Positions 36,697 through 55,026 of a DNA stretch of 64,000 nucleotides are shown here, piece after piece. Location: NCBI GenBank assembly GCA_030077755.1, contig JAQJZZ010000012.1:744001-808000 (forward strand), in the 5' to 3' direction. A program made the translations under genes and the position numbers. Position 1 is the first letter of the stretch. The number at the start of each line of letters is the position of its first letter. Under the pieces are notes generated by a model. It had not been told where the DNA came from. It made no database searches and saw only the letters and a list, made by a program, of their open reading frames with translations. The DNA comes from Filosporella fistucella (lineage: Eukaryota; Ascomycota; Leotiomycetes; Helotiales).

Positions 36697-38493
36697 CTAC
36701 ACGACATAGCCCTTGTTCTGTTTGACGCCCTTGACGTTCATGTTCTTCCATGCAACCATTGCTGCCAATCCCAAGGCCCAAGTTGTCGCCCCAGTGATCA
36801 GTAAGAGACGCCATGTATCTCCGTATGCATGTTGAATTGCCAACCGCGTAGGTGATCCCCATTCATAAGAGAGCTGCTCCGTAATATCACCGTATATCGT
36901 GGTAAGATTTCCTTGACTTTCGGGCGGAAGATACAAGGCTAGCTTCTCAGGAAAGGTGCCTTGCCAGATGGCCGAAGAAATCGTGTAGCCAACAGCACTG
37001 CCGATGTAACAGAACAGATTCAACAAAGCAATGCTGATAGCAAAGTACTGCTGTGCAGCAGCGGCCGCTAAGATGCCGATCTCAACCGTAAGCATCAGTA
37101 TTCCGAACCCAAAGTTGACGAAAATGTTGCACATTGCAATATACCCGACGTATTGATCGGGTTGGCGGAAATGGATCAGTAGACCTGTACCAAAGACAAT
37201 CAAAGGCAAGCCAAAGTAAATGCTTACAGGCTTGTAACGTCCTGTGTACGAAATTATTGCTCCGGCAGCAATATTCGCGATGACTTGTATGACCGTACTA
37301 GATTGTACTACGTAACTTGCTTGAGTCACGCTCAGGCCATTGACAACTTGCAGGAATGAGCTGAAGTAGGCATTCCAGCACATGATACTCGCAAAGAGTG
37401 TGAATCCCACCATACATGTTCCGAGCACCGTACGATCCCGAAGAATTGCCCATGGGGTAAGGGAGACTCGAGCGAAGAATCGTTCCCACACAACGAAGGC
37501 AGCAATGAGCAAGACGCCGAAGACAAGAAAGCAGATAATGAGGGGGGATTTCCAACCCTTGGCTTCTGTGGTGTAAAGATTGAATGGCAGGAGAAAGAAA
37601 GCAAAACCGGTTGAGATGAGCAATAGTCCAACAACGTCAAACTCGTGAAGGTAGTATACCACCGATTGGCCTGCTGTCCGGCCACTGTTTATTTTCGCTG
37701 GGATAATGCCAGCTTTCTTGGCTTTCTGGTAGTGAAACATAAACAGACCAAAGAGCGGAAGGGCGACGCCAGGAACCAAGATGCTTTCCATTCCAAAGGC
37801 CCAACGCCAGCCGACACCGTCTAAGAAAGATGTAGAGATTGGACCTGCAAGCCATGATGTAATCAAGTACGGCGAGTTGAGTAAAGCTTGCATAAGACCT
37901 CGATTGCGAAGTGAGGAAGTATCGGCAATGAACACGCTCAGACAATATCCAAGGCCATTGACACCAACAGTATAAAAGACTTGCGATGCAGCGTAAGCCT
38001 CGACGCCGTTACACGAAGCCGCCATGATGAGGCCTATAGTGGCACATCCTACACAAAGTAGGAAACCATGGGGTCGCCCGAAGATGTCGAGGATTTTCGC
38101 AACGCAAAGGTTCGTGACGCCGCCTATTACCTGGCTCAGGACACTGGTGGTAGGGATGAGTGAGTGTGCCGCAAAATCAGAAGTGACATATGGAAGTAAT
38201 GCGCCGCTGACTCCGGTCACAATGCCTTGGGCAAAGTACACGAACCAGATGGAAATGTAGGCTGCGATCAAGGGTTTCAAAGACCAGGCGATGGTGATTG
38301 CCTCAGCTTTTTGAACGCCTGGTTGGAAGTTGGTATCGATAGAATCGTCGTTGGGTGCATTGCCGTGAATGACACCTACACTGTGTTTGGTATCCGAGTC
38401 TGAACTCTGTTCAGAGTAATGCACCGTGCTGATTTCTTTGGTGTCATTTGTGACTGCGGGGAAGTCTGCCGCCGGGGAGTCGTTGGGGGCCAT
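36697..38493 (-). CDS. MFS siderophore-type transporter (SIT/ARN family)
   Basis: A single exon of 598 residues. An acidic/polar N-terminal tail of about 75 residues (with DSDTKHSVGVIHG) precedes IAAYISIWFVYFAQGIVTGV, the first of about 14 helices. Family features are the loop VAKILDIFGRPHGFLLCVGC (D-x-F-G-R-x-x-G/A in the helix 2-3 loop), a long central loop (KAKKAGIIPAKINS), an aromatic extracellular loop and a late extension LPPESQGNLTTIYGDITEQL before the last helix, as in Sit1/Arn/Mir proteins. These carriers take up ferric siderophores by proton symport at the plasma membrane. Its place at the edge of an isocyanide cluster suggests that it might carry the isocyanide metallophore or its metal complex. 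That link is inferred from position only. Confidence 0.85.
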   Translation of the reverse strand: MAPNDSPAADFPAVTNDTKEISTVHYSEQSSDSDTKHSVGVIHGNAPNDDSIDTNFQPGVQKAEAITIAWSLKPLIAAYISIWFVYFAQGIVTGVSGALLPYVTSDFAAHSLIPTTSVLSQVIGGVTNLCVAKILDIFGRPHGFLLCVGCATIGLIMAASCNGVEAYAASQVFYTVGVNGLGYCLSVFIADTSSLRNRGLMQALLNSPYLITSWLAGPISTSFLDGVGWRWAFGMESILVPGVALPLFGLFMFHYQKAKKAGIIPAKINSGRTAGQSVVYYLHEFDVVGLLLISTGFAFFLLPFNLYTTEAKGWKSPLIICFLVFGVLLIAAFVVWERFFARVSLTPWAILRDRTVLGTCMVGFTLFASIMCWNAYFSSFLQVVNGLSVTQASYVVQSSTVIQVIANIAAGAIISYTGRYKPVSIYFGLPLIVFGTGLLIHFRQPDQYVGYIAMCNIFVNFGFGILMLTVEIGILAAAAAQQYFAISIALLNLFCYIGSAVGYTISSAIWQGTFPEKLALYLPPESQGNLTTIYGDITEQLSYEWGSPTRLAIQHAYGDTWRLLLITGATTWALGLAAMVAWKNMNVKGVKQNKGYVV

Positions 38494-39355
38494 TTCTATG
38501 AGAGTCCTTAGGCTAGTCGATATTGTGTTGTTCTTGCTCTTCTTCTATTGTTGTCAGTGATGATGATGTAGTTGCTACTCAAGGAAGGGTAACCTACCTC
38601 GAAAGAGACAAGCAGAGAGCCAGATAACGAAAGTCGAAGGGGGTGAAGGGAACGATGAAAGAGAAGAGAAGGGAACCAAGGGAGAGATAGGTAGGGAAGA
38701 GAGCAGTAGGGCGAGACAGTGCGAGACGGCAAGACAATGAATTCACTACCTAATATCACCTGCACCCACCGTCAAATTTTATTTCAGTTGTAAAGTCGAT
38801 ATGAGTGGGAAACATGCGCCCCCAAATTGAGAACGTTTGCACCTGATATCAACGGAGCCTAATTGGCGAATCAGTGGGTTGTTCGCAATTAATGTTGGCC
38901 CGCTCAAAATCGCCTCGAATCTGCTCAAATATGGGCATGGCAACAACGCTAACCTATCGGAATAGCCTCAAATTCCACGGTCCACGGGCGGGATACTCTA
39001 GACCGCGCCATTTAAGTGCACGGGACAACGCCAGCTTCAAGTTACTTTATGATTGTCATAAATCAGTATCAGAGATTGGGCACCAGGTAATTCGGTAAGG
39101 TAAGGTATGTATGGGATGGTCTCGTAGCCAGTTCGCTTCTTATTATGCTCGCTTACACAGGCGGTGGAAGCAAGTTCTACAATTTGGCCAGCAAACGAAG
39201 AGCAATAAACTTGCTTGATGAATTGAAGTCTCCATTGTTATACTCCTGTGATATTGTAGGCAGATCTTTGTATAACTCATAATTGACTCTGTTCAATTTT
39301 CATGTCCATTTACAGAGGTGGAGTTCCAGACCACAGTATTCTTTCCCTCTAAATC
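38494..39355. other. intergenic between two minus-strand transporters
   Basis: Contains the promoter of the siderophore-type transporter. There is a purine-rich (GA-rich) stretch at about 38630-38730, just upstream of its start. No gene. Confidence 0.4.
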
Positions 39356-53600: not shown

Positions 53601-54147
53601 ACTAGTCTTTAAGTTTCAAACTTTGAAAATCTCCTGAAATTGAAGATTATACAAGTTGGCAAAGATCGTGAGGTCTTTAGCAGCTCCATACTTGCCTGTG
53701 TCCCGATTGAGGCAGAAGGCTGGTCCAATGTCCAATAAATGATGTTCGTTTGTAGCCTCATCGCGAATATGGGCATTCTTCAGCATGCAGTGGTATCCCC
53801 CAATCGTAGAATTCTTTTTTTTTAAAAAAAAAATTTGTCTTCGCAGGCATTGGCAGAGGCAGGAATGAGAACATTTGAGCAATTTTTCCAAGACATGAAT
53901 TCTGTGCTTAAGAGAAGCAAGTAAGCGGTGAATGGAATACATTTCCAAATAGTGGGAACCCGCAATACCTACCCTTGCTGCACTGAATCTCTCGCGGAAT
54001 GTACCCATTAAAAGACCACCCAGTACCATGGATAGTTAAAATCTTCCAAATCCAACGACGAAGTGTTCTAGAAGAATATAGAGAAAGAAGCTAGAGTCAG
54101 AGTATATCAGAGATCTTTACATCAATACTCCATTAATTTTTCTTCAC
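53601..54147. other. intergenic with a T9-A10 palindromic homopolymer (53815-53836)
   Basis: Nine T are followed by ten A and three T, a self-complementary low-complexity hairpin lying about 215 bases past the acyltransferase stop. The minus-strand frame 53616-54029 is read through this tract and has no domain. Confidence 0.4.
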
Positions 54148-55026
54148 ATGATGTTCGTCCCCTTCTCTCTCATCTTGTATCTTCCGTGAAATATTATTGA
54201 CACCCTATAGGGCTACCCCACCTACGAAATATGGCATCGTTGTATTCACTGGTTTTCAGGCGCTCGGTGAGTTGGCAGATTGTTTTTCAGAATCGAATTA
54301 AGAAACGAACATTAGTGACGACAAGCTAATACAAGATGTATCACAGATGTTTTTGGGCCGCTCAGTACCTTGAATGTGCTCTCTCGAGACCGGAAGATGG
54401 ATCTTGCAATCATAGCAGAGTCATTGACACCGGTATCGACCAATCCAGAACCAAATATATTTGTTTCATCGTCTTTTGGTCAGGAGATTGTACCCACTCA
54501 TACCTTCGCAAACGCGCCCGAAGTCGAGGTGCTCATCGTCCCTGGAGGTCAGTGTTCAATACAAATTCCCATGCGCATCCACCAACGCTGGATATCCAGT
54601 TGACAGCTGAGTTTAGGCTTTGGAACTCGTAACAAAGGAAACATGGCTCCAGTCGAAGCGTACATTCAATCTGTATTCTCTAATCTGGAGTACGTGATCA
54701 CCATCTGCACAGGTTCAGCGATCCTTGCAGGTATAGGTCTACTAGATAATCGGCGAGCAACAACAAACAAAAGCACATGGGACAGTGTAACGCCGCTTGG
54801 GCAGCGTACCGAGTGGGTGAGAAAGGCTAGGTGGGTTGTTGATGAGACTCCTGGAGTAACGCCGGTGTGGAGTTCGTCAGGTATCGCTGCAGGTATCGAT
54901 GTTACATTTGCGTTTATCCAGATGTTGTATGGCACGGCAACAGCAGAGAAGATTGCAAATGTGATGGAGTATGACAGACATTTGGATGATAAGTGGGACC
55001 CTTTCGCAGATAAATGGTCGGTTTAA
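54148..55026 (+). CDS. DJ-1/PfpI family protein, isonitrile hydratase-like
   Basis: The conserved exons are 54211-54266, 54347-54547 and 54617-55026. They read KYGIVVFTGFQALDVFGPLS, then EVEVLIVPGGFGTRNKGNM, ITICTGSAILAGIGLLDNRR and WSSSGIAAGIDVTF. The ICTGS elbow carries the reactive Cys (near residue 126). The block order, the nearby Thr and the R-R-A-T-T-N-K tail are those of isocyanide (isonitrile) hydratase and relatives, which convert isonitriles to N-formamides. No ATG is in frame with the first conserved exon. The best start is 54148 (MMFVPFSLIL) joined by a 34-base intron 54177-54210 (GTATCT..CTATAG), giving 231 residues, the usual size. That micro-intron is uncertain. In a cluster that makes isocyanides this gene fits a detoxifying or product-modifying role. 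Confidence 0.75.

What the first reader, a model, noticed from the sequence alone, without database searches (positions are those of the whole stretch)
36697..55026. Probable isocyanide (chalkophore/metallophore-type) biosynthetic gene cluster with an unusual layout
Seen: adjacent genes for a DIT1/PvcA-type isocyanide synthase, an A-T-BAHD NRPS-like enzyme, an HSL esterase, an HHxxxDG acyltransferase, a DHA14 exporter, a siderophore-type MFS and an isonitrile-hydratase-like DJ-1 protein, bounded on the right by a 1.8-kb gap. Known: fungal isocyanide synthases sit in clusters (xan, crm) with such partners, and the crm type responds to copper. Inference: this cluster makes an acylated amino-acid isocyanide that binds metal. 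This particular set of genes and fusions is not one that I recall.
Basis: partly seen in the sequence, partly recalled or inferred. Interest (0 to 1): 0.92.

Follow-up and report, generated by a model that had tools for sequence, protein, structure and literature searches.

The report
Isocyanide synthase fused to dead ATPase
This fungal stretch is a copper-responsive-type isocyanide gene cluster of a known kind, but its key enzyme carries a leftover piece of a drug-pump motor that has lost its power stroke yet is still conserved, an enzyme form that I did not find described.

Summary
In detail: seven genes at 36.7-55.0 kb form an isocyanide cluster. Content and order match the Fusarium oxysporum crm cluster in print (PMC11563359: crmC, A-T-transferase, isocyanide synthase, hydrolase, crmB), plus a DHA14 exporter and a DJ-1 protein. 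Six Mac1-type copper-response sites lie in five promoters (2.05 expected, P=0.0175), none of them in the hydrolase/crmB promoter, as in Fusarium. So the layout is known.

The isocyanide synthase (ICS) runs within one open frame into an ABC nucleotide-binding domain that resembles the second NBD of PDR transporters, without membrane parts. Ten relatives in other Ascomycetes share this design. The catalytic glutamate is glutamine in all 10 readable copies of 11 and in 0 of 58 comparison NBDs, yet the domain is better conserved than its linker (66% against 38%). Nearest kin are ICS fused to whole PDR transporters. I infer that a synthase-exporter fusion shrank to a synthase with a constrained, non-hydrolysing domain. 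The ICS survey that I read in part lists three ICS architectures, not this one. Product, copper response and the domain's role are untested; the window's ICS gene has an atypical splice junction.

The parts
36697..38493 (-). crmC-like siderophore-type MFS transporter
   Evidence: PF07690; 48-54% to the MFS fused to CrmA in three fungi, 38% in a fourth; an own-genome paralogue is closer
39356..41303 (-). DHA14-type MFS exporter, N-terminal exon uncertain
   Evidence: PF07690 in two exon pieces; start region holds an in-frame stop unless spliced
42669..46575 (-). A-T-BAHD NRPS-like protein, 1234 aa, 4 exons
   Evidence: gene model; homologues; C-terminal exon domains; motifs
46576..47325 (.). 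divergent promoter with three Mac1-type sites (46745-46753 -, 46791-46799 +, 47034-47042 -)
47326..49996 (+). ICS-NBD fusion gene, 786 aa model, 7 exons
   Evidence: model; Pfam; relatives
47608..48508 (+). isocyanide synthase domain (DIT1_PvcA, residues 95-367)
   Evidence: 71 of 72 columns conserved at 97% or more in relatives kept
48256..48289 (+). atypical intron 2: 34 nt, no AG where the ten relatives join the exons
48650..49735 (+). degenerate ABC nucleotide-binding domain of PDR NBD2 type (residues 415-720)
50404..51459 (-). HSL-type alpha/beta-hydrolase
   Evidence: PF07859 E 3.1e-44
52109..53600 (+). crmB-like HHxxxDG acyltransferase
   Evidence: PF07247 E 3.6e-6; model
54148..55026 (+). 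DJ-1/PfpI protein, isonitrile-hydratase-like
   Evidence: PF01965; InhA among PDB matches; model
38919..38927 (+). Mac1-type site before the crmC-like gene
41424..41432 (+). Mac1-type site before DHA14
53876..53884 (-). Mac1-type site before DJ-1

Best explanation
The locus is a crm-type (copper-responsive metabolite) isocyanide cluster of the split kind, in which the ICS and the A-T-acyltransferase are two divergent genes. Likely working, inferred from characterised crm clusters: under copper starvation a Mac1-type factor switches the genes on; the ICS turns an L-amino acid (valine by analogy) into the 2-isocyano acid; the A-T-BAHD protein activates that acid and moves it onto an alcohol such as mannitol; hydrolase and acetyltransferase add or trim acyl groups; the MFS proteins move product or metal complex; the DJ-1 protein hydrates free isocyanide as self-protection. 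Shown by sequence: gene content, order, catalytic motifs, promoter sites. New and shown by sequence: the ICS is fused to an ABC nucleotide-binding domain of PDR NBD2 type that has lost residues needed for ATP hydrolysis, has no membrane part, and is conserved in eleven fungi. Inferred: an ancestral ICS-PDR fusion, still found as proteins of about 1800 aa in many fungi, lost all but NBD2, and the remnant is now a non-hydrolysing docking, stabilising or nucleotide-sensing domain of the synthase.
For: Synteny with F. oxysporum crm: (P0015 is FOXG_09770 itself). Mac1-type sites: 6 in 4173 bp of promoters, 2.05 expected, P=0.0175. Fusion: one open frame 48284-48913; ten relatives of 753-800 aa, 8 of 10 with the same C-terminal tail. 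NBD2 origin: the 11 NBD-only rows form one clade (100/100) inside a 98/97 clade with ten ICS-PDR rows; P0122 scores 332 bits with NBD2 and 30 with NBD1 of Pdr5. Dead ATPase: Glu to Gln in 10 of 10 readable of 11 copies, Glu in 58 of 58 comparators; switch His kept in 1 of 11 against 58 of 58. Constraint: mean identity of window to ten relatives 84% ICS, 66% NBD, 38% linker, 40% tail. Fold: model of P0122 matches Pdr5, ABCG2 and PvcA/PIsnA.
Against: An AU test does not reject a tree with the NBD-only group outside the ICS-linked transporters (p=0.172). The window's ICS gene has an odd splice junction and the longest NBD tip branch of its clade (0.34), so this copy may be losing function. The Mac1-site excess is modest, came after scans with other patterns that showed none, and the whole window has no excess (26 against 29.6). 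PMC9381783 reports that the other cluster genes are not required for CrmA-dependent metabolites in A. fumigatus (passage). No expression or metabolite data here. Neighbours in the relatives were judged only from contig lengths and locus tags.
Confidence: 0.7

Rival explanations
1. The NBD is a passenger: a leftover of a lost transporter that rides behind the ICS and is decaying without function.
For: Hydrolysis residues lost; the NBD evolves faster than the ICS (66% against 84%), with a long stem (0.75); the window copy is the most decayed (tip 0.34).
Against: NBD far better conserved than linker, tail and N-terminus of the same proteins; 67 of 141 positions conserved in active NBD2s are kept in all NBD-only rows; length and frame kept in 11 fungi; full NBD fold predicted.
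Confidence: 0.22
2. The ICS-NBD protein still works as half of an ABC system, pairing in trans with an ABCG transporter to couple synthesis to export.
For: ICS fused to whole PDR transporters in 14 listed database proteins; Q-loop and signature largely kept.
Against: Catalytic Glu lost in all readable copies; Walker A Lys lost in both Venturia copies; no membrane domain; no own-genome PDR of the ICS-linked clade among six examined of at least ten.
Confidence: 0.08
3. The fusion is an annotation artefact of two neighbouring genes.
For: Some lichen-fungus records show ICS and PDR as separate neighbours (for example Q9216_000021 and 000023).
Against: In the window the join lies in one open frame, 48284-48913; ten independent records of the same length.
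Confidence: 0.04
4. The cluster is decaying in this genome: the ICS gene is no longer correctly spliced, so no isocyanide is made here.
For: No AG at the conserved exon join; the only in-frame GT-AG reading gives a 34-nt intron and six extra residues in a predicted helix.
Against: 71 of 72 strongly conserved ICS columns kept; A-T-BAHD intact and 85% identical to C. marina; may be an assembly error or an unusual splice.
Confidence: 0.3

Closest known systems
[quoted passage not shown]
   Same: Gene order; stand-alone A-T-transferase beside the ICS (FOXG_09770 is P0015, 63% identical); divergent hydrolase/crmB; Mac1-type sites in each promoter except hydrolase/crmB
   Different: Window adds a DHA14 MFS and a DJ-1 gene; its ICS carries an NBD2-type domain, where some Fusarium relatives carry a full PDR transporter (P0241-P0243) or little more than the ICS (P0151)
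crm cluster of Aspergillus fumigatus (CrmA, crmB, crmC, crmD), PMC9381783
   Same: ICS, A, T and transferase domains; crmB- and crmC-like genes
   Different: CrmA is one protein there (P0081, 1581 aa); the paper gives no hydrolase in that cluster; no Ctr match lies in the window
ICS fused to a full-length PDR transporter (14 database proteins of 1771-2088 aa)
   Same: ICS at the N-terminus joined to ABC parts; close kin by both ICS and NBD2 trees
   Different: Two NBDs and two membrane domains, catalytic residues intact (16 of 16 rows)
Dothideomycete CrmA with an additional transporter domain (PMC9381783)
   Same: A transporter domain on an isocyanide enzyme
   Different: The long CrmA-like proteins found here carry an MFS at the C-terminus (P0253), not an ABC NBD; that this is the domain meant is my inference, their figure was not seen
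PDR/ABCG transporters Pdr5, Cdr1, ABCG2
   Same: NBD fold and NBD2-type sequence
   Different: No membrane part; hydrolysis residues lost. Glu-to-Gln is also the engineered change in ABCG2 E211Q, ABCG1 E242Q and ABCG25 E232Q (entry titles; equivalence of position taken from the motif)

Membership tests
crm cluster | crm-like ICS | tested here: met
   ICS trees: window in a 99/99 clade with ICS-PDR and ICS-only rows, beside fused CrmA. No xan or dit sequence was in the trees; one ICS-TauD protein was outgroup
crm cluster | A, T and transferase domains working with the ICS | tested here: met
   on a separate gene, as FOXG_09770
crm cluster | ICS and A-T-transferase in one protein (CrmA as first described) | tested here: not met
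   two divergent genes; split rows make one side of a 100 branch with 38 of 40 split and 2 of 23 fused rows
crm cluster | crmB-like acetyltransferase and crmC-like siderophore MFS in place | tested here: met
   family and position; orthology of the MFS not shown
crm cluster | Mac1-type promoter sites | tested here: met
   6 against 2.05 expected, P=0.0175; modest
crm cluster | induction by copper starvation | not testable with these tools
   needs RNA-seq
crm cluster | valine-isocyanide-derived product | not testable with these tools
   needs LC-MS
dit cluster | P450 (Dit2) beside the ICS | tested here: not met
   no P450 among the seven products
xan cluster | ICS fused to a TauD dioxygenase | tested here: not met
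   no TauD match in the fusion protein
known ICS architectures (PMC10153163 section 18) | monodomain, ICS-TauD or ICS-NRPS-like | tested here: not met
   ICS plus ABC_tran
PDR/ABCG transporter | two NBDs and two membrane domains | tested here: not met
   one NBD, no ABC2_membrane match
active ABC ATPase | Walker B Asp, catalytic Glu, switch His | tested here: not met
   window has His, Gln and Asn there

The most novel reading that the evidence does not exclude
ICS-NBD proteins are a new class of isocyanide synthase in which an exporter fused to its enzyme was whittled down to one catalytically dead ATPase domain that now controls the synthase, for example as an ATP-bound docking clamp that holds the A-T-BAHD partner or places synthesis at a membrane. 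Enzyme-exporter fusion followed by loss of the pump would then be a route by which biosynthetic enzymes gain regulatory domains.
Probability: 0.4. Interest if true: 0.75.

Novelty: new variant of a known kind. Interest (0 to 1): 0.57.

Why it matters
The survey that I read in part states that all fungal isocyanide synthases in its set fall into three domain layouts; this adds two (ICS with a whole PDR exporter, ICS with a dead NBD2) and a plausible series between them. It offers a testable case of handing a reactive isocyanide straight to a pump, and of a pump motor kept as a pseudo-ATPase. It also shows the split crm pair, in print for Fusarium, in Dothideomycetes, Eurotiomycetes, lichen fungi and this genome, whose nearest relative by one gene is a Leotiomycete.

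Tried and rejected
Rejected: dit-type or xan-type cluster (no P450, no TauD). Rejected: that the split of CrmA is an accident of this genome; split A-T-BAHD rows group together (38 of 40 split rows and 2 of 23 fused rows on one side of a 100 branch), and 19 named species have the A-T-BAHD and the ICS on records with the same longest-contig length (read by eye from the capped lists; some others, such as V. nashicola and P. sporulosa, differ, perhaps as different assemblies). Weakened by a control: the crmC-like MFS as orthologue of the CrmA-fused MFS (own paralogue L036 is 45-62% to four fused MFS domains, the cluster's own 38-53%). Weakened: nested origin of the NBD in ICS-PDR fusions (AU p=0.172). 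Weakened: Cys 651 looked clade-specific against 58 rows, but Pdr5 and both Cdr1 sequences also have Cys there. Scans with TKTGCTCA and TTGCTSA showed no significant excess in the window; one search looked at 7- and 8-base versions in seven intergenic stretches; one search then used the printed Fusarium consensus in the five stretches that lie upstream of genes. First structure model had a poor NBD (mean pLDDT 53.6); with more NBD rows it was 65.9. No coding DNA of the relatives was at hand, so no dN/dS. Literature: ten searches, of which 5, 48, 70, 90 and 91 asked for an ABC, NBD or PDR term; none of the listed papers seen describes an ICS-ABC fusion, but most were seen as listings only, only open-licence PMC papers are held, and the journal version of the ICS survey was not seen.
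Full report
What is there. The window is C11:744001-808000 of a 45.8 Mb, 19-contig fungal genome. Seven genes lie between 36.7 and 55.0 kb. From left: a siderophore-type MFS (-), a DHA14-type MFS (-), an A-T-BAHD NRPS-like protein of 1234 aa (-), an isocyanide synthase gene (+), an HSL-type hydrolase (-), an HHxxxDG acyltransferase of the alcohol acetyltransferase kind (+) and a DJ-1 protein (+). Left of them lie histidine-kinase and response-regulator pieces, right of them a metallophosphatase and a methyltransferase-like gene, which do not look like pathway genes.

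It is a crm cluster of the split kind. In F. oxysporum the crm cluster consists of crmC (siderophore transporter), FOXG_09770 (transferase family protein), crmA, FOXG_09772 (hydrolase) and crmB, with FOXG_09772 and crmB divergent (PMC11563359, section 7 read; passages). FOXG_09770 is P0015 of my search, 63% identical to the window's A-T-BAHD over 99% of the query. The window has the same order and the same divergent pair, with a DHA14 gene after the crmC-like gene and DJ-1 added on the right. In C. heterostrophus, L. maculans and A. brassicicola a hydrolase also lies between crmA and crmB (PMC9381783, section 11). The genome has no second A-T-BAHD of this kind: the next match is 32% over part of the query.

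Copper control is likely but unproven. With the Mac1 pattern DHNTGCTCA of the F. oxysporum paper, six sites lie in 4173 bp of five cluster promoters (2.05 expected from a first-order Markov model of the same stretches, P=0.0175 in 2000 draws): three in the divergent ICS/A-T-BAHD promoter, one each before the crmC-like MFS, DHA14 and DJ-1, none in the hydrolase/acyltransferase promoter. F. oxysporum shows up to three sites in each promoter except that same one. The whole window has 26 sites against 29.6 expected, so the excess is local and modest, and earlier scans with other patterns showed none. The genome has four copper-fist matches, six Ctr matches at four loci and a second ICS locus beside a copper-type P-ATPase.

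The ICS is fused to an ABC domain. Pfam gives DIT1_PvcA (95-367) and ABC_tran (440-584) in one 786-aa model. The end of the ICS, the linker and the start of the NBD share the open frame 48284-48913, so the join does not depend on splicing. Against PDB sequences the NBD part matches yeast Pdr5 with 329 bits. Among the 120 hits listed (1294 in all) for this protein, ten are full-length relatives with the same two domains: Tothia, Lindgomyces, Exophiala, Fonsecaea, Venturia (2), Lophiostoma, Paraphaeosphaeria (2) and Exserohilum, 753-800 aa long, 8 of 10 with the same C-terminal tail. Class was looked up for three: Tothia and Lindgomyces are Dothideomycetes, Fonsecaea a Eurotiomycete.

Where the domain comes from. 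A search with the ICS part of P0131 (135 hits, 120 listed) gave 14 proteins of 1771-2088 aa that match my ICS, PDR N-terminal, NBD2 and TMD2 references in one chain (P0241-P0251, P0254, P0268, P0270), and two shorter ones (P0131, P0261). They come from Fusarium, Aulographum, Phialophora, Hyaloscypha, Cladophialophora, Clohesyomyces, Stagonosporopsis, Glarea, a Caloplaca lichen fungus, Zasmidium, Zymoseptoria and Pseudocercospora. In the ICS tree the 11 NBD-only rows form one clade (100/100) within a 26-row clade (99/99) that holds ten ICS-PDR and five ICS-only rows (64 of the 74 rows). In the NBD2 tree of 44 rows the 11 rows again form one clade (100/100), inside a 98/97 clade with ten ICS-PDR rows, and all ICS-linked NBD2s part from 12 other PDR proteins (100/96) (its bootstrap had not fully settled; 12 of the 37 other PDR rows were kept). 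Against this, an AU test does not reject the NBD-only group outside the ICS-linked transporters (p=0.172). P0122, a relative, scores 332 bits with NBD2 of Pdr5 and 30 with NBD1. Of six own-genome PDR loci put into the tree, out of at least ten seen, five fall in a 100 clade with 31 other PDR rows, and the sixth (L027) has other PDR rows as its five nearest but no starred set. So no intact transporter of the ICS-linked kind was seen in this genome among those tested.

It is a pseudo-ATPase that is still constrained. The catalytic Glu after Walker B is Gln in 10 of 10 readable NBD-only copies (the eleventh, V. nashicola, lacks the stretch in its record), and Glu in 16 of 16 ICS-PDR and 42 of 42 other PDR NBD2s. 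The switch His remains in 1 of 11 against 58 of 58. The Walker A Lys is missing in both Venturia copies, the Ser/Thr after it in the window and in P. minitans. Yet the NBD is 66% identical between the window and its relatives and 72% among the relatives, against 38% and 42% for the linker, 40% and 40% for the tail, 26% and 34% for the N-terminus, and 84% and 86% for the ICS. Of 141 positions conserved in active NBD2s, 67 are kept in all NBD-only rows, and 26 positions carry a residue typical of this group (one of them, Cys 651, also occurs in Pdr5 and Cdr1). In a model of P0122 (mean pLDDT 65.9) ten-residue blocks of the NBD lie mostly between 54 and 84, with one of 37; the model matches Pdr5 and ABCG2, and PvcA and PIsnA for the ICS. 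I read this as a domain kept for something other than hydrolysis; a slowly decaying passenger is the main rival.

The window's own copy may be impaired. All ten relatives join exon 2 to exon 3 at one point; in the window there is no AG at that point, and the in-frame GT-AG reading gives a 34-nt intron and six extra residues, inside what is a helix (287-315) in the models of P0122. An assembly error, an unusual splice or a real lesion are all possible. The window has the longest NBD tip branch of its clade. The ICS domain otherwise keeps 71 of 72 columns that are conserved at 97% or more among 182 sequences.

Likely mechanism. Shown by sequence: A, T and transferase motifs present (SGTTG, NLTGTTEG, GRSDD, LGLDSL, HxxxDG), DJ-1 of isonitrile-hydratase-like sequence, though its best PDB match is another ThiJ-family protein. 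Inferred from PMC9381783 (abstract, sections 6, 11, 33 and passages read): L-valine to 2-isocyanoisovalerate, activation on the A-T protein, transfer to mannitol, further acylation by hydrolase and acetyltransferase. [quoted passage not shown] fumigatus (passage), which counts against firm roles for the tailoring genes. Which amino acid is used here is unknown.

Novelty. The ICS survey preprint (PMC10153163: abstract, sections 18, 20, 21 and passages read) states that all ICS enzymes in its set match one of three layouts and that the Fusarium GCF 8 has a monodomain ICS next to an NRPS gene. Lim et al. 2018 (PMC5974471, passages only) lists the same three. Won et al. (PMC9381783) mention an additional transporter domain in Dothideomycete CrmA; the long CrmA-like proteins found here carry an MFS, not an ABC domain (P0253 scanned), but I did not see their figure. 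The searches named in Tried and rejected gave no ICS-ABC fusion. The cluster is thus a new member of a known kind; the ICS-NBD protein is a new variant of a known enzyme class.

Noticed in passing
L033 and L034 (G000:C11:96001-113000): Second isocyanide locus on the same contig: two adjacent ICS genes, a copper-type P-ATPase (CASC motif, read by eye), an amidase-like ORF, an MFS-like ORF and a DJ-1 protein 53% identical to the window's; it recalls the two-ICS cluster (icsA/icsB) of A. fumigatus in Lim 2018.
   Followed up: partly
window 48256-48289: Odd splice junction of the ICS gene: no AG where all ten relatives join the exons.
   Followed up: partly
P0241-P0251, P0254, P0268, P0270: ICS fused to complete PDR transporters in many Ascomycete lineages, absent from the three layouts of the ICS survey; one (Glarea, P0250) also has a C-terminal DJ-1 domain 41% identical to the window's, possibly a merged gene model.
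   Followed up: partly
P0252, P0253, P0265, P0302: CrmA-like proteins of 2072-2200 aa with a C-terminal siderophore-type MFS.
   Followed up: partly
G000:C4:1826421-1828073 (L036): Own paralogue of the crmC-like MFS that is closer to the CrmA-fused MFS domains (45-62%) than the cluster's own MFS (38-53%).
   Followed up: no
window 32357-36215: Histidine-kinase and response-regulator pieces directly left of the cluster; not tested for a link.
   Followed up: no
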